64,000 bases of DNA from contig CM065650.1 in assembly GCA_033220425.1 (NCBI GenBank), forward strand, positions 3,348,001-3,412,000. Reading direction: 5' to 3'. The notes under the pieces are model-generated. The model had not been told where the DNA came from and ran no database searches. It saw nothing but the letters and a program-made list of their open reading frames with translations. The translations under genes were made by a program, and so were the position numbers. The DNA is from Lepraria neglecta (taxonomy: Eukaryota > Ascomycota > Lecanoromycetes > Lecanorales > Stereocaulaceae). The first letter of the stretch is position 1, and each line of letters opens with the position of its first letter. Of this stretch, positions 8,101 to 45,519 are shown one piece after another.

Positions 8101-8708
8101 AACCTAGGGAGGGACCTAATATAGAAAAAGCCTTAGTTAAGGTAGAGGAGCTAAAGAATTTATATAAGAATATATAAAAGACGATTAAAAGCTTAAATAA
8201 TAAGTTAAAGGGATAAGTTAATAATAAAAGAAAGAATATTCCTCAGCTTAAAGAGGGGGATAAAGTATACCTTCTAATAAAAAATATGAAGATAATAAGA
8301 CTAAGTAAGAAACTAGATTATATTAAGGTCGGACTATTCTTGATTAAGAAGGTAAAGGGGGCCGTTAACTATAAACTCGAGCTTCTACCTGATACTAAAG
8401 TATATCCGGTATTCTATATCTTACTTCTAGAGCTAGCCGACTCTAATATACTACTCTAAGAAATATTTTATTATAATATTAAGGAAGAAATAGAGTATAA
8501 GGTCGAGAGGATCCTAGATAGAAGAAATTAGTTCTATCTGGTTAAATAGAAAGGGTATAATAAAACGGAAAGTACCTGGGAACCTCTTAGGAACCTTGCG
8601 GGGAATTATAGGGAATATCTATAAGAGTTCTATTAGAGGTAAGAGAGGACTAGTTAAAGCCCTCGGGGACTTCTAAACTGTCGGGGAAATCGAACCGCTC
8701 GGAACTAA
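5136..8708 (+). pseudogene. pol: element A Pol (PR-RT-RH-INT-chromodomain)
   Basis: Read in the -1 frame from the slippery site. Domains in order: aspartic protease AIIDSGAIGNF at about 5274-5306; reverse transcriptase about 5850-6700 with the catalytic box as YLDNILIYS at 6354 (second Asp mutated to Asn, GAT to AAT); RNase H with FIDYKNLLNF-like motif near 7000; integrase with an HHCC region about 7390-7530 and the catalytic core from about 7615; GPY/F module about 8290-8450; and a chromodomain with VERILDRRN, YLVK and TWEPLRNL at about 8490-8600. Stops are TAG/TAA at Gln/Trp positions. The end at 8708 is the first stop not easily explained by RIP; an earlier TAA at 8655 is CGA in element C. 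The 3' end overlaps the antisense ORF. Confidence 0.85.
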
Positions 8709-9114
8709 CGTCGAATATAAGGTTGTCTAGAGTAGCTGAGGAGGCTCGTTGATCTTCCTCTAGCTCTGCGATATTTAAAAGTTCCCTTTCGATAAGTCTC
8801 CTTTTTTCCTCTTCGATACGATCTTCCTCCGCCTATAAGCGTGCGAGCTTAGCGACTATTTCACGAATCTCGGTGCGAACTTTCTTTCGCGTACTCTCTA
8901 TACGACGTATCTTAAGGGGTGACACTATAAGGTCGCACTTTTTACTACCAGCTACGCAAGCGGAATAACAGTCAGAGTTAGACCCTACTAAATACTGCCT
9001 ACTAAGCCGGGTACAGTTGTTGCAAGGATGTATAATAGCTTCTAAGAGTTCCTTAGAGAGTTCGGTGCGACGGACGACAGGGTCCCTAGATCGTTTGGTA
9101 CGTTGGGGTGGCAT
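8587..9114 (-). pseudogene. element A antisense Zn2Cys6-like ORF
   Basis: A minus-strand frame starting MPPQRTK near the polypurine tract, with a Cys array at PCNNC ... SACVAGSKKCDL. Position for position it matches the CX2CX6CX8CX2CX6C array of element B, with Tyr at two Cys positions (TGT to TAT). The frame is open for the first 93 codons, through IVSPLKIRRIES, then damaged. It ends at a TAA (8587-8589) that is conserved in every copy, inside the chromodomain coding region on the other strand. The frame is also open upstream into the LTR (a conserved RFLVPRNHPSF), so the true start may be further right. The Gal4-type Zn cluster assignment is by spacing only. Confidence 0.6.
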
Positions 9115-9127
9115 GAAGGATGGATGG

Positions 9128-9162
9128 TTTCTCGGGACGAGAAATCTAGAGGAGGGGGCTAG
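9128..9162 (+). other. element A 3' hairpin and polypurine tract
   Basis: A perfect 7-bp stem TTTCTCG-GGA-CGAGAAA (9128-9144) is followed by the purine-rich tract AGAGGAGGGGGCTAG directly before the 3' LTR, the usual plus-strand primer. The hairpin occurs at the same place in B, C, F and (mutated) G. Confidence 0.75.
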
Positions 9163-20364: not shown

Positions 20365-20802
20365 TGTTAGAACCAGAAGGTTCTGACAGGACTGTCGCGA
20401 AGGACACAGGACTTCGGACAGGACATGTTGCTCGCAATGATCGCAGGCGCTAAGCGTGCGATCAATGCTATCGTAACATGTTGCTCGCAATGATCGCAGG
20501 CGCTAAGCGTGCGATCAATGCTATCGAGAAGTGCTTGGCAGGATTTCTTGTGTCTATATATACGGGGCTTTGCCCACTATTTGGAACAGCGTGTTTAACT
20601 TGGCAAACCATTACTTGGTTAATCTTCCTAGTACCCCTTGTACTATACTTTACTAGTTATTAATATAGAACGCATTGACTACCTACACACACGAAGACTG
20701 CCATTCTACCTAAGTGACTCCTCTCCCACAGAAGCATAAGATATCTATACCTATACCCGGTTATCGCACCGTTAGGTAAATGATCGGACGTGGGTCGTAA
20801 CA
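20365..20802 (+). repeat. element B 5' LTR (438 bp)
   Basis: Starts TGTTAGAACC and ends CGTAACA. U3 holds a tandem duplication: CATGTTGCTCGCAATGATCG begins at 20424 and again at 20477 (period 53). TATATATA is at 20555-20562 and GTGTTTAA at 20591-20598, 36 nt downstream. Confidence 0.95.
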
Positions 20803-25500: not shown

Positions 25501-26072
25501 TAGAAGAGCTAAAGAATTTATATAAGGATATATAAAGGACGATTAAAAGCTTAAATAATAAGTTAAAGGGATAGGTTAATAGTAAAAGAAAGAATATTCC
25601 TCAGCTTAAAGAGGGGGATAAAGTATACCTCCTAACAAAAAATATGAAGATAATAAGACCAAGCAAGAAATTAGATTATATTAAGGTCGGACTATTCTTG
25701 ATCAAGAAGGTAAAGGGGGCTATTAACTATGAACTCGAGCTTCTACCTGACGCTAAAGTATATCTAGTATTCTATATCTTACTTCTAGAGCCAGCAGACT
25801 CTAATACACTACTCCAAGAAATATTTTATTATAACGTTAAGGAAGAAACAGAGTATAAGGTCGAGAGGATCCTAGATAGAAGAAATCAGTTCTATCTAGT
25901 TAAATAGAAAGGGTACGACGAAACGGAAAGTACCTGGGAACCTCTTAGGAACCTTGCGGGGAACTGTAGGGAATGTCTACGAGAGTTCTATCAGAGAGAA
26001 GAGAAGACCAGTTAAAACTCTTAGGGACTTCGGGCCCGTCGGGGAGATCGAAACGCTCGGACAAGATATTGA
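22494..26072 (+). pseudogene. pol: element B Pol (PR-RT-RH-INT-chromodomain)
   Basis: The -1 frame is uninterrupted by indels from the slippery site to the end. Protease AIIDSGATGNFIS at 22629-22667 is intact, inside an open stretch 22602-22805. RT about 23200-24020 has YLNNILIYS at 23712 (both catalytic Asp now Asn). RNase H about 24100-24520 contains YIETDTSDLVIGVC and FTDYKNLLNF. The integrase zinc region is open at 24702-24896 (RDYHDDLLQGYPGVSKTMEL). The core starts near 24975 (DFIVKLPPSKDPA) with ISDRDKLFTSNY-like second Asp near 25165. GPY/F is at 25644-25800. The chromodomain at 25842-25990 (VERILDRRN, YLVK, KGYDETESTWEPLRNL) has one stop, at the Trp of 'VKWKGY'. The first TAA at 26013 may be RIP-made (CGA in C); TGA at 26070-26072 is the likelier end. 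Confidence 0.9.
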
Positions 26073-26508
26073 ACATCAAGTCGTCAGGAACAATAGGGAC
26101 CCGGTCCCTCTCCAACTCCTGAATGTTTTGGACTTCTCAGTCCACCAGCTTCTTCTTCTCCTCTTCTACATATTCGTATTACAACTAAAGACGCGCCAAC
26201 TTGGATTGTTCGCGCACCATTTCATTTACTAACTGATCGACTCGCTCACGGGTAGCCTTTAACTGTAACCAGGTAGCCTTTCATTCAGACTCTATTCGAC
26301 GTATCTCAAGGGGCGACACCACAAGGTCGCATTTCCTACTACCATCGACGCAGTTAGAACATCGGTCGGAACCAGCACCTATCAGGCACTATTTCCCAGT
26401 AGCGGTACATCGGGAGCAGGGGCGCATTACTACCTCGACTAGTTCACGAGCCAGCTCCTTCGCACGAGTGGCTAGGTTGGATAATCATTTAGTACGTTGG
26501 GGTAGCAT
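25945..26508 (-). pseudogene. element B antisense Zn2Cys6-like ORF
   Basis: A 187-codon minus-strand frame from ATG at 26506-26508 (MLPQRTK) to TAA at 25945-25947. Residues 31-60 contain six cysteines spaced CX2CX6CX8CX2CX6C (PCSRC ... C ... DRCSNCVDGSRKCDL). This is the spacing of the fungal Zn(II)2Cys6 (Gal4-type) cluster, with basic residues between, as in DNA-binding members. A heptad-like charged helix follows (RERVDQLVNEMVREQSKLAR and onward), as in the coiled-coil dimerisation region of such factors. The C-terminus reads DLMFNILSERFDLPDGPEVP then FNWSSLL. The few stops (TGA and TAG/TAA at Arg, Gln and Trp positions) are RIP-type. It overlaps the pol end tail-to-tail by 71-128 bp. A start further upstream in the LTR cannot be excluded. 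Confidence 0.7.
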
Positions 26509-26521
26509 GAAGGATGGATGG

Positions 26522-26556
26522 TTTCTCGGGACGAGAAATCTGGAGGGGGGAGCTAG
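26522..26556 (+). other. element B 3' hairpin and polypurine tract
   Basis: TTTCTCG-GGA-CGAGAAA at 26522-26538, then GGAGGGGGGAGCTAG up to the LTR. Confidence 0.75.
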
Positions 26557-26994
26557 TATTAGAACCAGAAGGTTCTAACAGGACTGTCGCGAAGGACACA
26601 GGACTTCGGACAGGACATGTTACTCGCAATGATCGCAGGCGCTAAGCGTGCGATTAATGCTATCATAATATATTGCTCGTAATGATCGCAGGCGCTAAGC
26701 ATGCGATCAATGCTATCGAGAAGTGCTTGGCAGGATTTCTTATGTCTACATATACGGGGCTTTGCCTACTGTTTGGAACAGCGTGTTCAACTTGGCAAAC
26801 CATTACTTGGTTAATCTTCCTGGTACCCCTTGCACTATACTTTACTAGTTATCAACATAGAATGTATTGACTACCTACACACACGAAGACTGCCATTCTA
26901 CCTGAGTGACTCCTCTCCCACAGAAGCATAAGATATCTACACCCATACCCGGTTATCGCACCGTTAGGTAAACGATCGGACGTGGGTCGTAACA
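26557..26994 (+). repeat. element B 3' LTR (438 bp)
   Basis: Same length as the 5' LTR. Keeps the U3 duplication, TATATATA-type box and an intact GTGTTCAA at 26783-26790. Followed by the TSD GTTAG. Confidence 0.95.
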
Positions 26995-32100: not shown

Positions 32101-32685
32101 GAGAAAGCTTTAGTTAAGGTAGATAAGCTAAAGAATTTATATAAAGAGATATAAAGGTCTATCGAAAGCTCTAATATTAAGTTAAAGGAATAAGTTAACT
32201 AGAGAAGAAAGAATATTCCTTAGCTAAAAGAGGGGGATAAAGTATACCTCTTAATAAAAAATATAAGGATAATAAGACTAAGTAAGAAACTAGATTATAT
32301 TAAGGTTAGACTATTCTTAATTAAACGGATAAAAGGACTAGTTAACTATAAACTCTAACTTCTACCTAACGCAAAGGTATATCCGGTATTCTATATCTTA
32401 CTCCTGGAGCTAGTAGACTCTAGTATACCTCTCTAAGAAATATTTCATTATAATATTAAGGAAGAAATAGAGTACGAGGTTAAGAGGATCCTAGATAGAA
32501 GGAATTAGTTCTATCTAGTTAAATAGAAAGGGTATAACGAAACGGAGAATACCTGGGAACCTCTTAAGAACCTTGCGGGGAACTATAGGGAATATCTCTA
32601 AGAGTTCTATTAGAAATAAGAGAAGACCAGTCGAAGCTCTCGGGGCCTTCCAGGCCGGGGGGGAGGTCGAACTACTCGGAACTAA
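29122..32685 (+). pseudogene. pol: element C Pol (PR-RT-RH-INT-chromodomain)
   Basis: Protease AIIDSRATRNFISRDLV at 29257-29307 (Gly of DSGAT mutated to Arg, GGA to AGA). RT about 29850-30640 with YLDNILIYS at 30331. RNase H near 30760-31110. Integrase zinc region about 31370-31510 and core from about 31590. GPY/F module near 32260-32420. Chromodomain near 32455-32600 (VKRILDRRN, YLVK, NTWEPLKNL). Frame phase is constant from the slippery site. Stops are TAG/TAA at Gln/Trp. The likely end is TAA 32683-32685, in the same relative place as in A. Overlaps the antisense ORF. Confidence 0.85.
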
Positions 32686-33091
32686 TATTGAATATTAGAC
32701 TATCGGGAGTACTAGAAGGAAGTTCTTTATCCTTCTCTAACTCTTCGATATTTTATAATTCGCGCTCGATTAACTTCTTTTCTTTATTTTAAATAAGGTT
32801 AAATTATAATTAAAGGCGTATAAGCTTCGCCTACGTTTCCTTTATTTCTAACTAAGTATTATTACGTACTTTCTTAATATAACGTATCTTATTAATAGAT
32901 ACGACTAGGTCGCACTTCTTACCTATAGTAATATAGTTAGAACAACGATCCGAACACGCGCCAACTATATACTATTTATAACCCTTCGTATATAGGGTAC
33001 AAGGATATATTACGAAAGTAGATAACTCGCTAGAAAGTTCTTTGCGACGAATGGCGGGGTCTTTAGATTAGGTAATTCAATAGGGTAGTAT
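32564..33091 (-). pseudogene. element C antisense Zn2Cys6-like ORF
   Basis: Same length (528 nt) as in A and G. Start ATG is ATA (33089-33091). The metal-binding stretch reads YPCTLYTKGYK, YIVGACSDRCSNY and GKKCDLVVS: at the six Cys positions of element B it has C, Y, Y, C, Y, C with identical spacing, each Tyr being the RIP product of a Cys codon (TGT/TGC to TAT/TAC). The stop TAA (32564-32566) is at the conserved site inside the chromodomain region. The helical middle part is more eroded than in B. Confidence 0.6.
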
Positions 33092-33104: not shown

Positions 33105-33139
33105 TTTCTCGGGACGAGAAATCTAGAAGAGGGGGCTAG
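33105..33139 (+). other. element C 3' hairpin and polypurine tract
   Basis: TTTCTCG-GGA-CGAGAAA at 33105-33121, then AGAAGAGGGGGCTAG before the LTR. Confidence 0.75.
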
Positions 33140-42400: not shown

Positions 42401-43037
42401 GAAAGAATATAAACACATTTCTATAAGCTAGAGACGGACCTAATATAGAAAAAGCCTTAGTTAAGGTAGAGGAGCTGAAGAATTTGTATAAAGATATATA
42501 AAGGATGATTAAAAGCTTAAATAATAAGTTAAGGGGATAAGTTAACTATAAAAGAAAGAATGTTCCTTAGCTTAAAGAGGGGGATAAAGTGTACCTCCTA
42601 ATAAAAAATATAAAGATAACGAGACCAAGCAAGAAACTAGATTATATTAAGGTCGGACTATTCTTGATTAACAAGATAAAGGGGGCTATTAACTATAAAC
42701 TCGAGCTTCTACCTGACGCTAAGGTATATCCGGTATTCTATATCTTACTTCTGGAGCTAGTAGACTCTAATATACTACTCTAAGAAACGTTTCATTACGA
42801 TATTAAGGAAGAAACAGAGTATAAGGTCGAGAGGATCCTAGATAGAAGAAATTAGTTCTATCTAGTTAAATAGAAAGGGTACGATAAGATAGAAAGTACC
42901 TAGGAACCTCTTAGGAACCTTGCGGGGAATTATAGGGAACGCCTATAAGAGTTTTATCGGAGATAAGAGAAGACCAGTTAAAACTCTTAGGGCCCTCTAG
43001 GCCGGGGGGAGGTTAAACTACTTAGAGCCGACGTTAA
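39460..43037 (+). pseudogene. pol: element F Pol (PR-RT-RH-INT-chromodomain)
   Basis: Protease AMIDSRATGNFIS near 39595-39635 (Gly to Arg). RT about 40180-40980 keeps the catalytic box YLDDILIYSENKEEY at 40678 fully intact, the only copy here to do so. RNase H near 41110-41470 (IETDASDLAIRVY). Integrase zinc region near 41725-41860 with core from about 41935. GPY/F with KITRPSKKLDYIKVGLFLI inside an open stretch 42589-42783. Chromodomain near 42810-42950 (VERILDRRN, YLVK, STWEPL partly as ST-EPL). The end near 43037 is approximate. Stops TAG/TAA. The intact RT box in an otherwise stopped frame is chance survival from RIP. Confidence 0.85.
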
Positions 43038-43437
43038 ATATTAAACCGTCAGGAGTATTAGAAGGAAGGTTCTTACCCTTCTCTAACTCCTTAATATTCT
43101 ATAATTTGCGCTTAACTAACTTTCTCTCTTTATCCTAAACTCGATCGAATTATAATTAAAGGCGTATAAGTTTCGCCTGCGTTTCTTTTATTTCCGACCA
43201 AGTATCGTCGCATACTTTCTTAATATAATATATCTCGTTAATAGATATAACTAGGTTATACTTCTTGCCTGTAGCAATATAGTTGGAATAACGGTCTAAA
43301 CGGATACCTACTAAGTATTACCTATTACCCTTCGTATAGAGAGTATAAGGATATATTATAAATCTGGATAATTTACTAGAGAGTTCTTTATAACGGACGA
43401 TAGGATCTTTAGAATAGATATTTCGACGAGGAGGTAT
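42911..43437 (-). pseudogene. element F antisense Zn2Cys6-like ORF
   Basis: Start ATG is ATA at 43435-43437. The first part is open (PRRNIYSKDPIVRYKELSSK then FIIYPYTLYTKGNR). All six Cys positions but none of the spacing is altered: Y, Y, Y, Y, Y, Y in place of C where readable (YPYTLYTKGNR, YLVG, LDRYSNY, GKKYNL). The stop TAA (42911-42913) is at the conserved site. Total length is 1 nt off a multiple of 3, so there is one small indel. Confidence 0.55.
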
Positions 43438-43450
43438 AAAGGATGGATAG

Positions 43451-43485
43451 TTTCTCGGGACGAGAAATCTAGAGGAGGGGGCTAG
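43451..43485 (+). other. element F 3' hairpin and polypurine tract
   Basis: TTTCTCG-GGA-CGAGAAA at 43451-43467, then AGAGGAGGGGGCTAG before the LTR. Confidence 0.75.
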
Positions 43486-44943: not shown

Positions 44944-44978
44944 TTAGCTCCCTCTCCCAGATTTCTTGTCTCGAGAAA
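44944..44978 (-). other. element G polypurine tract and 3' hairpin
   Basis: On the minus strand TTTCTCG-AGA-CAAGAAA (plus-strand 44962-44978, one stem base mutated) precedes CTGGGAGAGGGAGCTAA against the LTR. Confidence 0.65.
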
Positions 44979-44991
44979 CCATCTATCCTTT

Positions 44992-45519
44992 ATATTACCC
45001 CGCTATACTAAACGTTCAAAGAAGCAAGCCGTCCGCCGAAAGGAGCTAGCTAGTAAGTTATCCGAGTTTATAATACAGCTATATTCTCGATACGTTGCCG
45101 GTGGCAAGTAGTATCTAGTAGGTACTAAATCCGATCGATACTCTAACTGCGTGGACGGTAGTAGGAAATGCGACCTTATAGTATCGGTCCTTGAGATACG
45201 TCGTATTGAAAAGCGGCGAAATGAAATACTATAGGAGCTATCCGATTCTATAGCAAAGCTCGGTTATCTCCAAAAATAGCTCGAGGCGGTAGAAGGTAAA
45301 AAGAAGCTAATAGTCGAACGTGAGCTATAGAATATTAGGGAATTGGAGGAGGACTAGCGTATCGCTCCTGCGTCTTCTAATAACCTAATGTTCAACGTCT
45401 CGTCCGAACGGTTCAATCTCCCCGGCGGGCTGGAAGCCCCCGAGAGCTTCGACTAGTCTTCTCTTATCTCTAATAGAACTCTTATAGACGTTCCCTATAG
45501 TTCCCTACAAGGTTCCTAA
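44992..45519 (+). pseudogene. element G antisense Zn2Cys6-like ORF
   Basis: On the plus strand because G is reversed. Start ATA (for ATG) at 44992, stop TAA 45517-45519, 175 codons. Text aligns residue by residue with B although the subfamilies differ: KRSKKQAVRRKELASKLSEF, then the Cys array as Y, Y, Y, Y, C, C with the same spacing (YSRYVAGGK, SDRYSNCVDGSRKCDLIVS), LEIRRIEKRRNEIL, a charged helix (LEAVEGKKKLIVEREL), and NNLMFNVSSERFNLPGGLEA, PESFD. Only about five RIP stops in 175 codons. Upstream the frame is open into RFLVSRNHLSF, as in the other copies. Confidence 0.65.

What the first reader, a model, noticed from the sequence alone, without database searches (positions are those of the whole stretch)
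25945..26508. Conserved antisense Zn2Cys6-like ORF inside the retrotransposons
Five elements of two divergent subfamilies (A 8587-9114, B 25945-26508, C 32564-33091, F 42911-43437, G 44992-45519) carry a frame on the strand opposite to gag-pol, between the chromodomain and the 3' LTR. In B six cysteines are spaced CX2CX6CX8CX2CX6C, which is the Gal4-type Zn(II)2Cys6 pattern, followed by a coiled-coil-like helix and a conserved tail (SERF-LP ... F-WSSL). In the other copies the same positions are Cys or Tyr, the RIP product of Cys. The stop is at the same place in all copies, overlapping the pol end. It looks like an accessory gene transcribed from the 3' LTR region that could bind DNA (perhaps the element's own U3) or target sites. 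I know of no described chromovirus with this arrangement.
Basis: partly seen in the sequence, partly recalled or inferred. Interest (0 to 1): 0.9.

Follow-up and report, generated by a model that had tools for sequence, protein, structure and literature searches.

The report
Antisense zinc-cluster gene in fungal retrotransposon
Hidden on the back strand of a decayed family of fungal jumping genes is a real, long-conserved gene for a small protein built like a DNA-binding switch, next to a strictly kept DNA palindrome that it may bind; an antisense gene at this place was already reported in one related mould element.

Summary
In this fungal genome 150 scored places (of 464 candidates) carry the antisense frame, each with at least one stop, nearly all stops of RIP type. 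Across 99 distinct copies it behaves as a protein gene: transversions concentrate at its third codon positions, a degeneracy test rules out the one sense frame that mimics this, and in 101 copies all 606 cells at the six Cys columns are Cys or Tyr. Database searches found 37 relatives, 15 with all six Cys, two of them open over 174 aa. The protein looks like a minimal transcription factor: basic head, CX2CX6CX8CX2CX6C cluster, long helix, acidic-aromatic tail. Pfam's Zn_clus model stays below its cut-off, so Gal4-type membership is not shown. New here: the 48-bp leader between antisense start and 3' LTR holds the palindrome TTTCTCG-N3-CGAGAAA, with no transversion in 98 copies, also between unrelated LTR types. 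Most likely the gene makes a dimeric nuclear regulator of its own element, in the manner of HTLV-1 HBZ. The arrangement is not new: the Botrytis chromovirus Boty has an antisense gene (brtn) there. Zinc, DNA binding and expression are inferred.

The parts
25945..26508 (-). Element B: antisense frame, 187 codons plus TAA (7 stops counting the terminal one)
26329..26418 (-). Element B: six-Cys cluster C-X2-C-X6-C-X8-C-X2-C-X6-C (residues 31-60)
   Evidence: column statistics
26086..26313 (-). Element B: stretch matching the long predicted helix of relative P0001 (residues about 66-141 in B, which has an insertion)
   Evidence: (model of P0001), motif positions; mapping is inference
25948..26085 (-). 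Element B: acidic-aromatic tail, its last part encoded opposite the chromodomain end of pol
   Evidence: tail composition of relatives
25854..25997 (+). Element B: chromodomain at the pol end (PF00385, E 1.1e-10, 41.7 bits); pol stop TAA at 26013-26015
26522..26538 (.). Element B: palindrome TTTCTCG-GGA-CGAGAAA in the antisense leader
26542..26552 (+). Element B: polypurine tract (by position and composition)
   Evidence: sequence
26557..26994 (+). Element B: 3' LTR (starts TATTAGAAC, RIP form of TGTTAGAAC; paired with about 20366-20802)
   Evidence: self-comparison
8587..9114 (-). Element A: antisense frame (two internal stops)
9128..9144 (.). Element A: palindrome, exact
32564..33091 (-). 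Element C: antisense frame
33105..33121 (.). Element C: palindrome, exact
42911..43437 (-). Element F: antisense frame with a C-terminal frameshift also seen in five genome copies
43451..43467 (.). Element F: palindrome, exact
44992..45519 (+). Element G (inverted): antisense frame lies on the plus strand here
44962..44978 (.). Element G: palindrome with two transitions

Best explanation
The frame is an accessory gene of a Ty3/gypsy chromovirus, read opposite to gag-pol; it starts 48 bp away from the inner edge of the 3' LTR and ends inside the chromodomain codons. Shown: it was under selection as a protein, it is present in nearly every copy checked, and open relatives exist elsewhere. Its product has a basic head, a six-Cys cluster, one long helix and an acidic-aromatic tail, the layout of a minimal dimeric transcription factor (composition and model; zinc and dimer inferred). 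Inferred mechanism: an antisense promoter in the 3' LTR makes the mRNA; the protein goes to the nucleus, dimerises through the helix, binds the palindrome TTTCTCG-N3-CGAGAAA between LTR and its own start codon, and there regulates its own transcription and the activity of the adjoining LTR, so that each element carries a regulator and its operator. It would work like HTLV-1 HBZ without being related to it. Step by step: protein gene 0.97; zinc-cluster dimer with a nuclear, nucleic-acid-directed role 0.7; own palindrome as the binding site 0.35.
For: Coding and selection. Presence: 150 scored antisense places; of 150 scored chromodomain ends I picked by eye 10 that were absent from the antisense list, and 9 carry the frame over 143 or more codons, 1 only its last 32. 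Relatives: 8 then 36 proteins, 37 distinct, two open ones of 174 aa with six Cys, 25 of 37 ending in QGS, the tail that overlaps pol here. Two relatives (P0006, P0018) read on upstream through the same leader...FLVPRNH(P/L)SF-M, as the genome copies do, so at least these two sit behind the same palindrome and polypurine tract. Architecture: helix 66-127, pLDDT about 95 over 71-120, short helices 32-37 and 51-56 starting after the first Cys of each CX2C; tails with net charge -6 to -12 and 4-7 aromatics in 13 of 14 relatives measured. Leader: 0.0019 transversions per site over its first 43 bp in 24 representatives, none in the palindrome in 98 copies; 0.0006 between LTR groups whose LTRs differ at 0.387 when compared without gaps. 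The palindrome with any spacer occurs 242 times in the genome, 241 with the spacer RGA, 235 with the element's flanks, reversed control 0.
Against: PF00172 stays below cut-off in the 15 copy pieces and the 18 of 37 relatives scanned; profile comparison reaches probability 25-61% and aligns one half-cluster only, and permuting the non-Cys columns of Zn_clus still gave 53% or more in at least 4 of 40 trials. The Pro before Cys 4 that is invariant in 20 of the host's own Zn_clus domains is absent. No PDB relative. No RNA data, no promoter shown. The leader also holds the polypurine tract, so its conservation may serve plus-strand priming. The palindrome also folds as an RNA hairpin in 3 of 4 strands tested. 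Part of the tail's conservation comes from the overlapping pol. All 101 copies read carry internal stops.
Confidence: 0.5

Rival explanations
1. The protein is real, but the conserved leader belongs to reverse transcription: palindrome and purine tract are the plus-strand primer region (or an RNA hairpin next to it), and the antisense protein acts elsewhere.
For: The polypurine tract follows the palindrome after 3 bp and the whole measured leader is conserved, not the palindrome alone. RNA folding gives the 7-bp hairpin as the minimum in 3 of 4 strands tested, z -0.5 to -2.5.
Against: A purine tract needs no perfect 7+7 dyad beside it (recalled); the dyad lies 13 bp from the antisense start codon in 71 of 71 exact copies among 97. 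RIP-type transitions in dead copies cannot tell DNA site from hairpin.
Confidence: 0.3
2. The protein is a chromatin or integration cofactor: the zinc cluster and helix tether the pre-integration complex or the chromodomain integrase to target chromatin.
For: Position beside and overlapping the chromodomain; plant antisense accessory proteins have been proposed to serve nuclear steps (PMC7264820 section 7).
Against: No direct evidence; the acidic-aromatic tail and leader dyad fit transcription control better (inference).
Confidence: 0.12
3. Only the antisense RNA matters (double-stranded RNA feeding silencing); the protein frame is incidental.
For: Antisense non-coding roles are proposed for other elements (PMC7264820 passages).
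Against: Codon-position, degeneracy and Cys statistics and open relatives require selection on the protein.
Confidence: 0.04
4. Artefact: an overlapping open frame preserved by chance or by constraint on a sense-strand frame, with RIP making spurious Cys/Tyr patterns.
For: One sense frame shares the third positions, gives Kn/Ks 0.53 and has fewer stops (mean 4.4 against 5.6).
Against: Degeneracy of that sense frame has no effect (0.184 v 0.184) while that of the antisense codon has (0.246 v 0.106); homologous proteins elsewhere.
Confidence: 0.01

Closest known systems
brtn, antisense gene of Boty-like retrotransposons of Botrytis cinerea (Zhao et al. 2011, Virology 417:248; not held, seen only as title and in citing papers)
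   Same: Antisense to gag-pol, between pol and 3' LTR (PMC7264820 passages), fungal chromovirus (gag-pol with CHROMO domain, PMC4227169 passages); a Monilinia transcript similar to truncated Pol and BRTN is reported (PMC5987419 passage).
   Different: Whether BRTN has the six-Cys cluster, the helix or the palindrome could not be checked: no BRTN sequence or full text was available.
Plant antisense accessory ORFs (aORF-3R): Grande gene23, RIRE2, Retand TRP28 protein, PvRetro13 ORF2
   Same: Same position and orientation, present in most copies, nuclear or DNA-binding role suspected (PMC7264820 and PMC11963269, passages).
   Different: Other protein domains (TRP28, SMC) are named for them; Retand is a non-chromovirus lineage with a pol-LTR region of 2.9-6.6 kb; no zinc cluster described in the passages seen.
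HTLV-1 HBZ
   Same: Nuclear protein encoded antisense in a retroelement, antisense promoter inside the 3' LTR (PMC11963269 and PMC7264820 passages); zipper-type dimer (recalled).
   Different: bZIP, not a six-Cys cluster; retrovirus; no common descent claimed.
Gal4-type Zn(II)2Cys6 factors (PF00172)
   Same: Two CX2CX6C halves, helix after the cluster, fungal; relative P0026 (Lasallia pustulata, 40% identical to P0001) is named Zn(2)-C6 fungal-type domain protein by UniRef.
   Different: Below the Pfam cut-off; X8 between halves against X5-6 in the 20 host domains aligned; no Pro before Cys 4.

Membership tests
Antisense accessory ORF between pol and 3' LTR (aORF-3R) | Antisense to gag-pol, between pol end and 3' LTR | tested here: met
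Antisense accessory ORF between pol and 3' LTR (aORF-3R) | Present in most copies with conservation at protein level | tested here: met
   (capped lists; 9 of 10 picked ends)
Antisense accessory ORF between pol and 3' LTR (aORF-3R) | Antisense transcript | not testable with these tools
   no RNA data
Chromovirus (Ty3/gypsy with chromodomain) | Chromodomain at the C-terminus of pol | tested here: met
   PF00385 41.7 bits, cut-off 25.1
Chromovirus (Ty3/gypsy with chromodomain) | Reverse transcriptase placed in a chromovirus clade by phylogeny | not tested
   only stop-free pieces read by eye
Gal4-type Zn(II)2Cys6 (PF00172) | Score over the curated cut-off (21 bits) | tested here: not met
   best 16.0 bits; 13.8 and 13.3 bits best in the 18 of 37 relatives scanned
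Gal4-type Zn(II)2Cys6 (PF00172) | Six Cys in two CX2CX6C halves | tested here: met
   15 of 37 relatives, one of them with X8 in the first half
Gal4-type Zn(II)2Cys6 (PF00172) | Pro before Cys 4 (invariant in 20 host domains) | tested here: not met
   compare
Gal4-type Zn(II)2Cys6 (PF00172) | Basic stretch between Cys 2 and Cys 3 | tested here: inconclusive
   absent as a run in the window's family, but P0035 has RRSKRD and P0012/P0014 have several basic residues
Gal4-type Zn(II)2Cys6 (PF00172) | Profile-profile homology over the whole cluster | tested here: inconclusive
   probability 25-61%, one half only
Gal4-type Zn(II)2Cys6 (PF00172) | Binds two zinc ions and DNA | not testable with these tools
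   needs a bench test
BRTN family of Boty elements | Sequence homology to BRTN | not testable with these tools
   paper not held and no BRTN sequence at hand

The most novel reading that the evidence does not exclude
A widespread lineage of fungal chromoviruses carries, antisense beside its 3' LTR, a self-contained regulatory unit: a zinc-cluster transcription factor of its own (possibly a six-Cys cluster not homologous to Gal4 domains) and its cognate operator palindrome, kept intact while the LTRs beside it were exchanged, so that the element, like HTLV-1 with HBZ, times its own silence and expression.
Probability: 0.33. Interest if true: 0.85.

Novelty: new variant of a known kind. Interest (0 to 1): 0.6.

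Why it matters
The function of antisense accessory genes of LTR retrotransposons is not known (PMC7264820, passages and section 7). Here one comes with a readable protein architecture and an adjoining strictly conserved DNA dyad, which turns the question into a single binding experiment. It also shows that heavily RIP-mutated copies still hold a usable selection signal if only transversions are counted, and it would give fungi a counterpart to the antisense regulators of complex retroviruses.

Tried and rejected
Rejected: chance overlap or sense-frame constraint (degeneracy test); RIP artefact (Cys/Tyr columns still vary between C and T at third positions, and transversions follow the codon); antisense RNA alone. 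Led nowhere: first protein search with one copy (none at E 0.01); profile search of PDB sequences; structure of a 95-residue piece (mean pLDDT 63.6, low in the cluster); viral contigs, prokaryote genome contigs, plasmids: no match; Rfam at gathering scores: none. The palindrome as a motif of the host at large: not supported, 241 of 242 exact-arm sites have the element spacer and 235 the element flanks. Literature: searches gave no paper; some searches gave listings; among these I saw no paper joining Zn2Cys6 with an antisense retrotransposon gene, but the library holds open-licence papers only. The species of the genome was not identified.

Full report
What is there. The window lies in a 42-Mb, 11-contig genome; it is fungal by its RIP-like mutations and by 68 Zn_clus matches over the cut-off, the species unknown. 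The elements are Ty3/gypsy chromoviruses: stop-free sense pieces of A and B include protease-, reverse-transcriptase- and integrase-like segments in that order (recognised by eye), and the pol end of B is a chromodomain (PF00385, 41.7 bits). Opposite to it, from 26508 down to 25945, runs the antisense frame; its stop lies within the chromodomain codons, 71 nt inside the pol end at 26015. Its start lies 48 bp from the 3' LTR (26557-26994).

Is it more than chance. A protein search of the own genome with copy A (X at stops) scored 150 of 464 candidates, all at E 2.2e-39 or better, most over the full length and each with at least one stop. I read 101 copies (98 loci and three window copies); all have internal stops. 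Window F and one duplicate were dropped for the counts, leaving 99, from which 25 representatives more than 0.03 transversions per site apart were taken. Counting transversions only, which RIP does not make, the antisense-only part changes at 0.120, 0.089 and 0.221 per site at codon positions 1, 2 and 3; the part overlapping pol at 0.0275, 0.0191 and 0.032, as expected where two proteins share the DNA. Transversion Kn/Ks is 0.40 in this frame; in the other five it is 1.16, 1.46, 1.23, 0.53 and 1.58. The sense frame with 0.53 shares its third positions with the antisense frame and even has fewer stops; a test on degeneracy separates them: four-fold against other antisense codons 0.246 v 0.106, four-fold against other sense codons 0.184 v 0.184. 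Of 537 antisense stops, 527 can arise by C-to-T or G-to-A from a codon seen in another copy; the share is also high in other frames (446 of 489 in the rival sense frame), so this point alone proves little.

The cluster. In all 606 cells the six columns are Cys (279) or Tyr (327). Nine of 101 copies keep all six Cys; six copies do so within a stop-free stretch, in a scan in which 13 of 97 loci fell out for a Pro that my pattern required.

Presence. Of 150 scored chromodomain ends I picked by eye 10 with no partner in the capped antisense list; 9 have the frame over at least 143 codons and one, L126, only its last 32. How many of the 150 lack a listed partner was not counted.

Relatives outside. 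A profile of ten copies found 8 proteins, a profile with those found 36, 37 distinct in all. P0001 and P0002 are 174 aa, open, with a Met start, six Cys and the ...SSQGS end. Of the 37, 15 carry all six Cys in this order, 3 have Cys or Tyr, 19 do not span the cluster or lack it; 25 end in QGS. 35 of 37 are unnamed ENA predictions; P0026 of Lasallia pustulata is named Zn(2)-C6 fungal-type by UniRef and lacks the pol-overlap tail. P0006 and P0018 happen to be predicted with an upstream extension; it reads ...APP(S/P)RFLVPRNH(L/P)SF before the Met, as does the antisense translation of the leader in the window's family, in which 79 of 98 copies contain FLVPRN. Thus the same leader precedes the gene in those two. 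DNA context of the relatives could not be fetched.

The leader. The 48 bp between the antisense start and the LTR contain TTTCTCG-GGA-CGAGAAA and a polypurine tract; the palindrome is exact in 71 of 97 copies. In the 98 of 100 copies without gaps (L031 and L089 excluded) it has 37 transitions and no transversion; the first 43 bp average 0.0019 transversions per site in 24 representatives. Copies fall into 84 with one LTR start, 9 in a second group that is itself mixed, and 5 unassigned; between the two groups the LTRs differ at 0.387 transversions per site over 56 positions compared without gaps (little likeness left), the leader at 0.0006, the palindrome at 0. Because the dyad has no CpA or TpG it is largely spared by RIP, which explains the few transitions but not the lack of transversions. 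Genome-wide the pattern with any spacer occurs 242 times, 241 with RGA as spacer, 235 with the element's flanks; the reversed pattern 0.

What the protein is like. The 29-residue heads of P0001, P0002, P0009 and P0010 have net charge +5 to +6; the tails of 13 of the 14 relatives measured run from -6 to -12 with 4-7 aromatic residues (P0026, with another tail, -5). That is the layout of a DNA-binding, dimerising, activating factor, by composition only, and part of the tail is shared with pol. Zn_clus membership is not shown: 8 of 15 pieces list it at E up to 10 but the best is 16.0 bits against 21; of 18 of 37 relatives scanned, the 8 that list it score 8.4 to 13.8 bits; profile comparison with 20 host Zn_clus domains gave probability 25 (A4), 34 (A1) and 61 (cluster part), the printed alignments covering one half only; 40 random column orders of Zn_clus reached at most 24.7, but with the Cys columns fixed at least 4 of 40 reached 53 or more, so most of the resemblance is Cys spacing.

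Known or new. [quoted passage not shown] PMC8365987 and PMC4227169, passages). The original brtn paper is not held, so I cannot say whether BRTN is the same protein; I guess it likely (about 0.6, from position and host group alone). What I did not see in the searches made is the six-Cys cluster, the selection test, or the leader palindrome.

Verdict. A real, old protein gene of a chromovirus lineage, broken in all 101 copies read here, probably a small nuclear regulator of its own element; the operator role of the palindrome is the boldest step and is open to one experiment.

Noticed in passing
window 26557-26580 and equivalents: The main LTR type begins with an inverted repeat (T[GA]TTAGAAC...GTTCT[AG]A[CT]A) whose arms recur in many of the 20 copies printed while the spacer changes.
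   Followed up: no
L027, L037, L044, L061, L074, L082, L097, L098, window G against the rest: Nearly identical leader joined to unlike LTR starts: at least two LTR types within one family, which suggests LTR exchange.
   Followed up: partly
window 42911-43437; L019, L020, L022, L023, L024: These six copies have a C-terminal frameshift that gives the antisense product another end (...RA[PL]R...).
   Followed up: partly
window 25945-26015 and equivalents: In the antisense codons that overlap pol (last 25 or so) all three codon positions are conserved, a case of two-strand coding.
   Followed up: partly
P0035, P0036, P0026: Relatives with the same kind of cluster and an EL..IEELE motif but other tails; they may belong to other elements or to host genes derived from them.
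   Followed up: no
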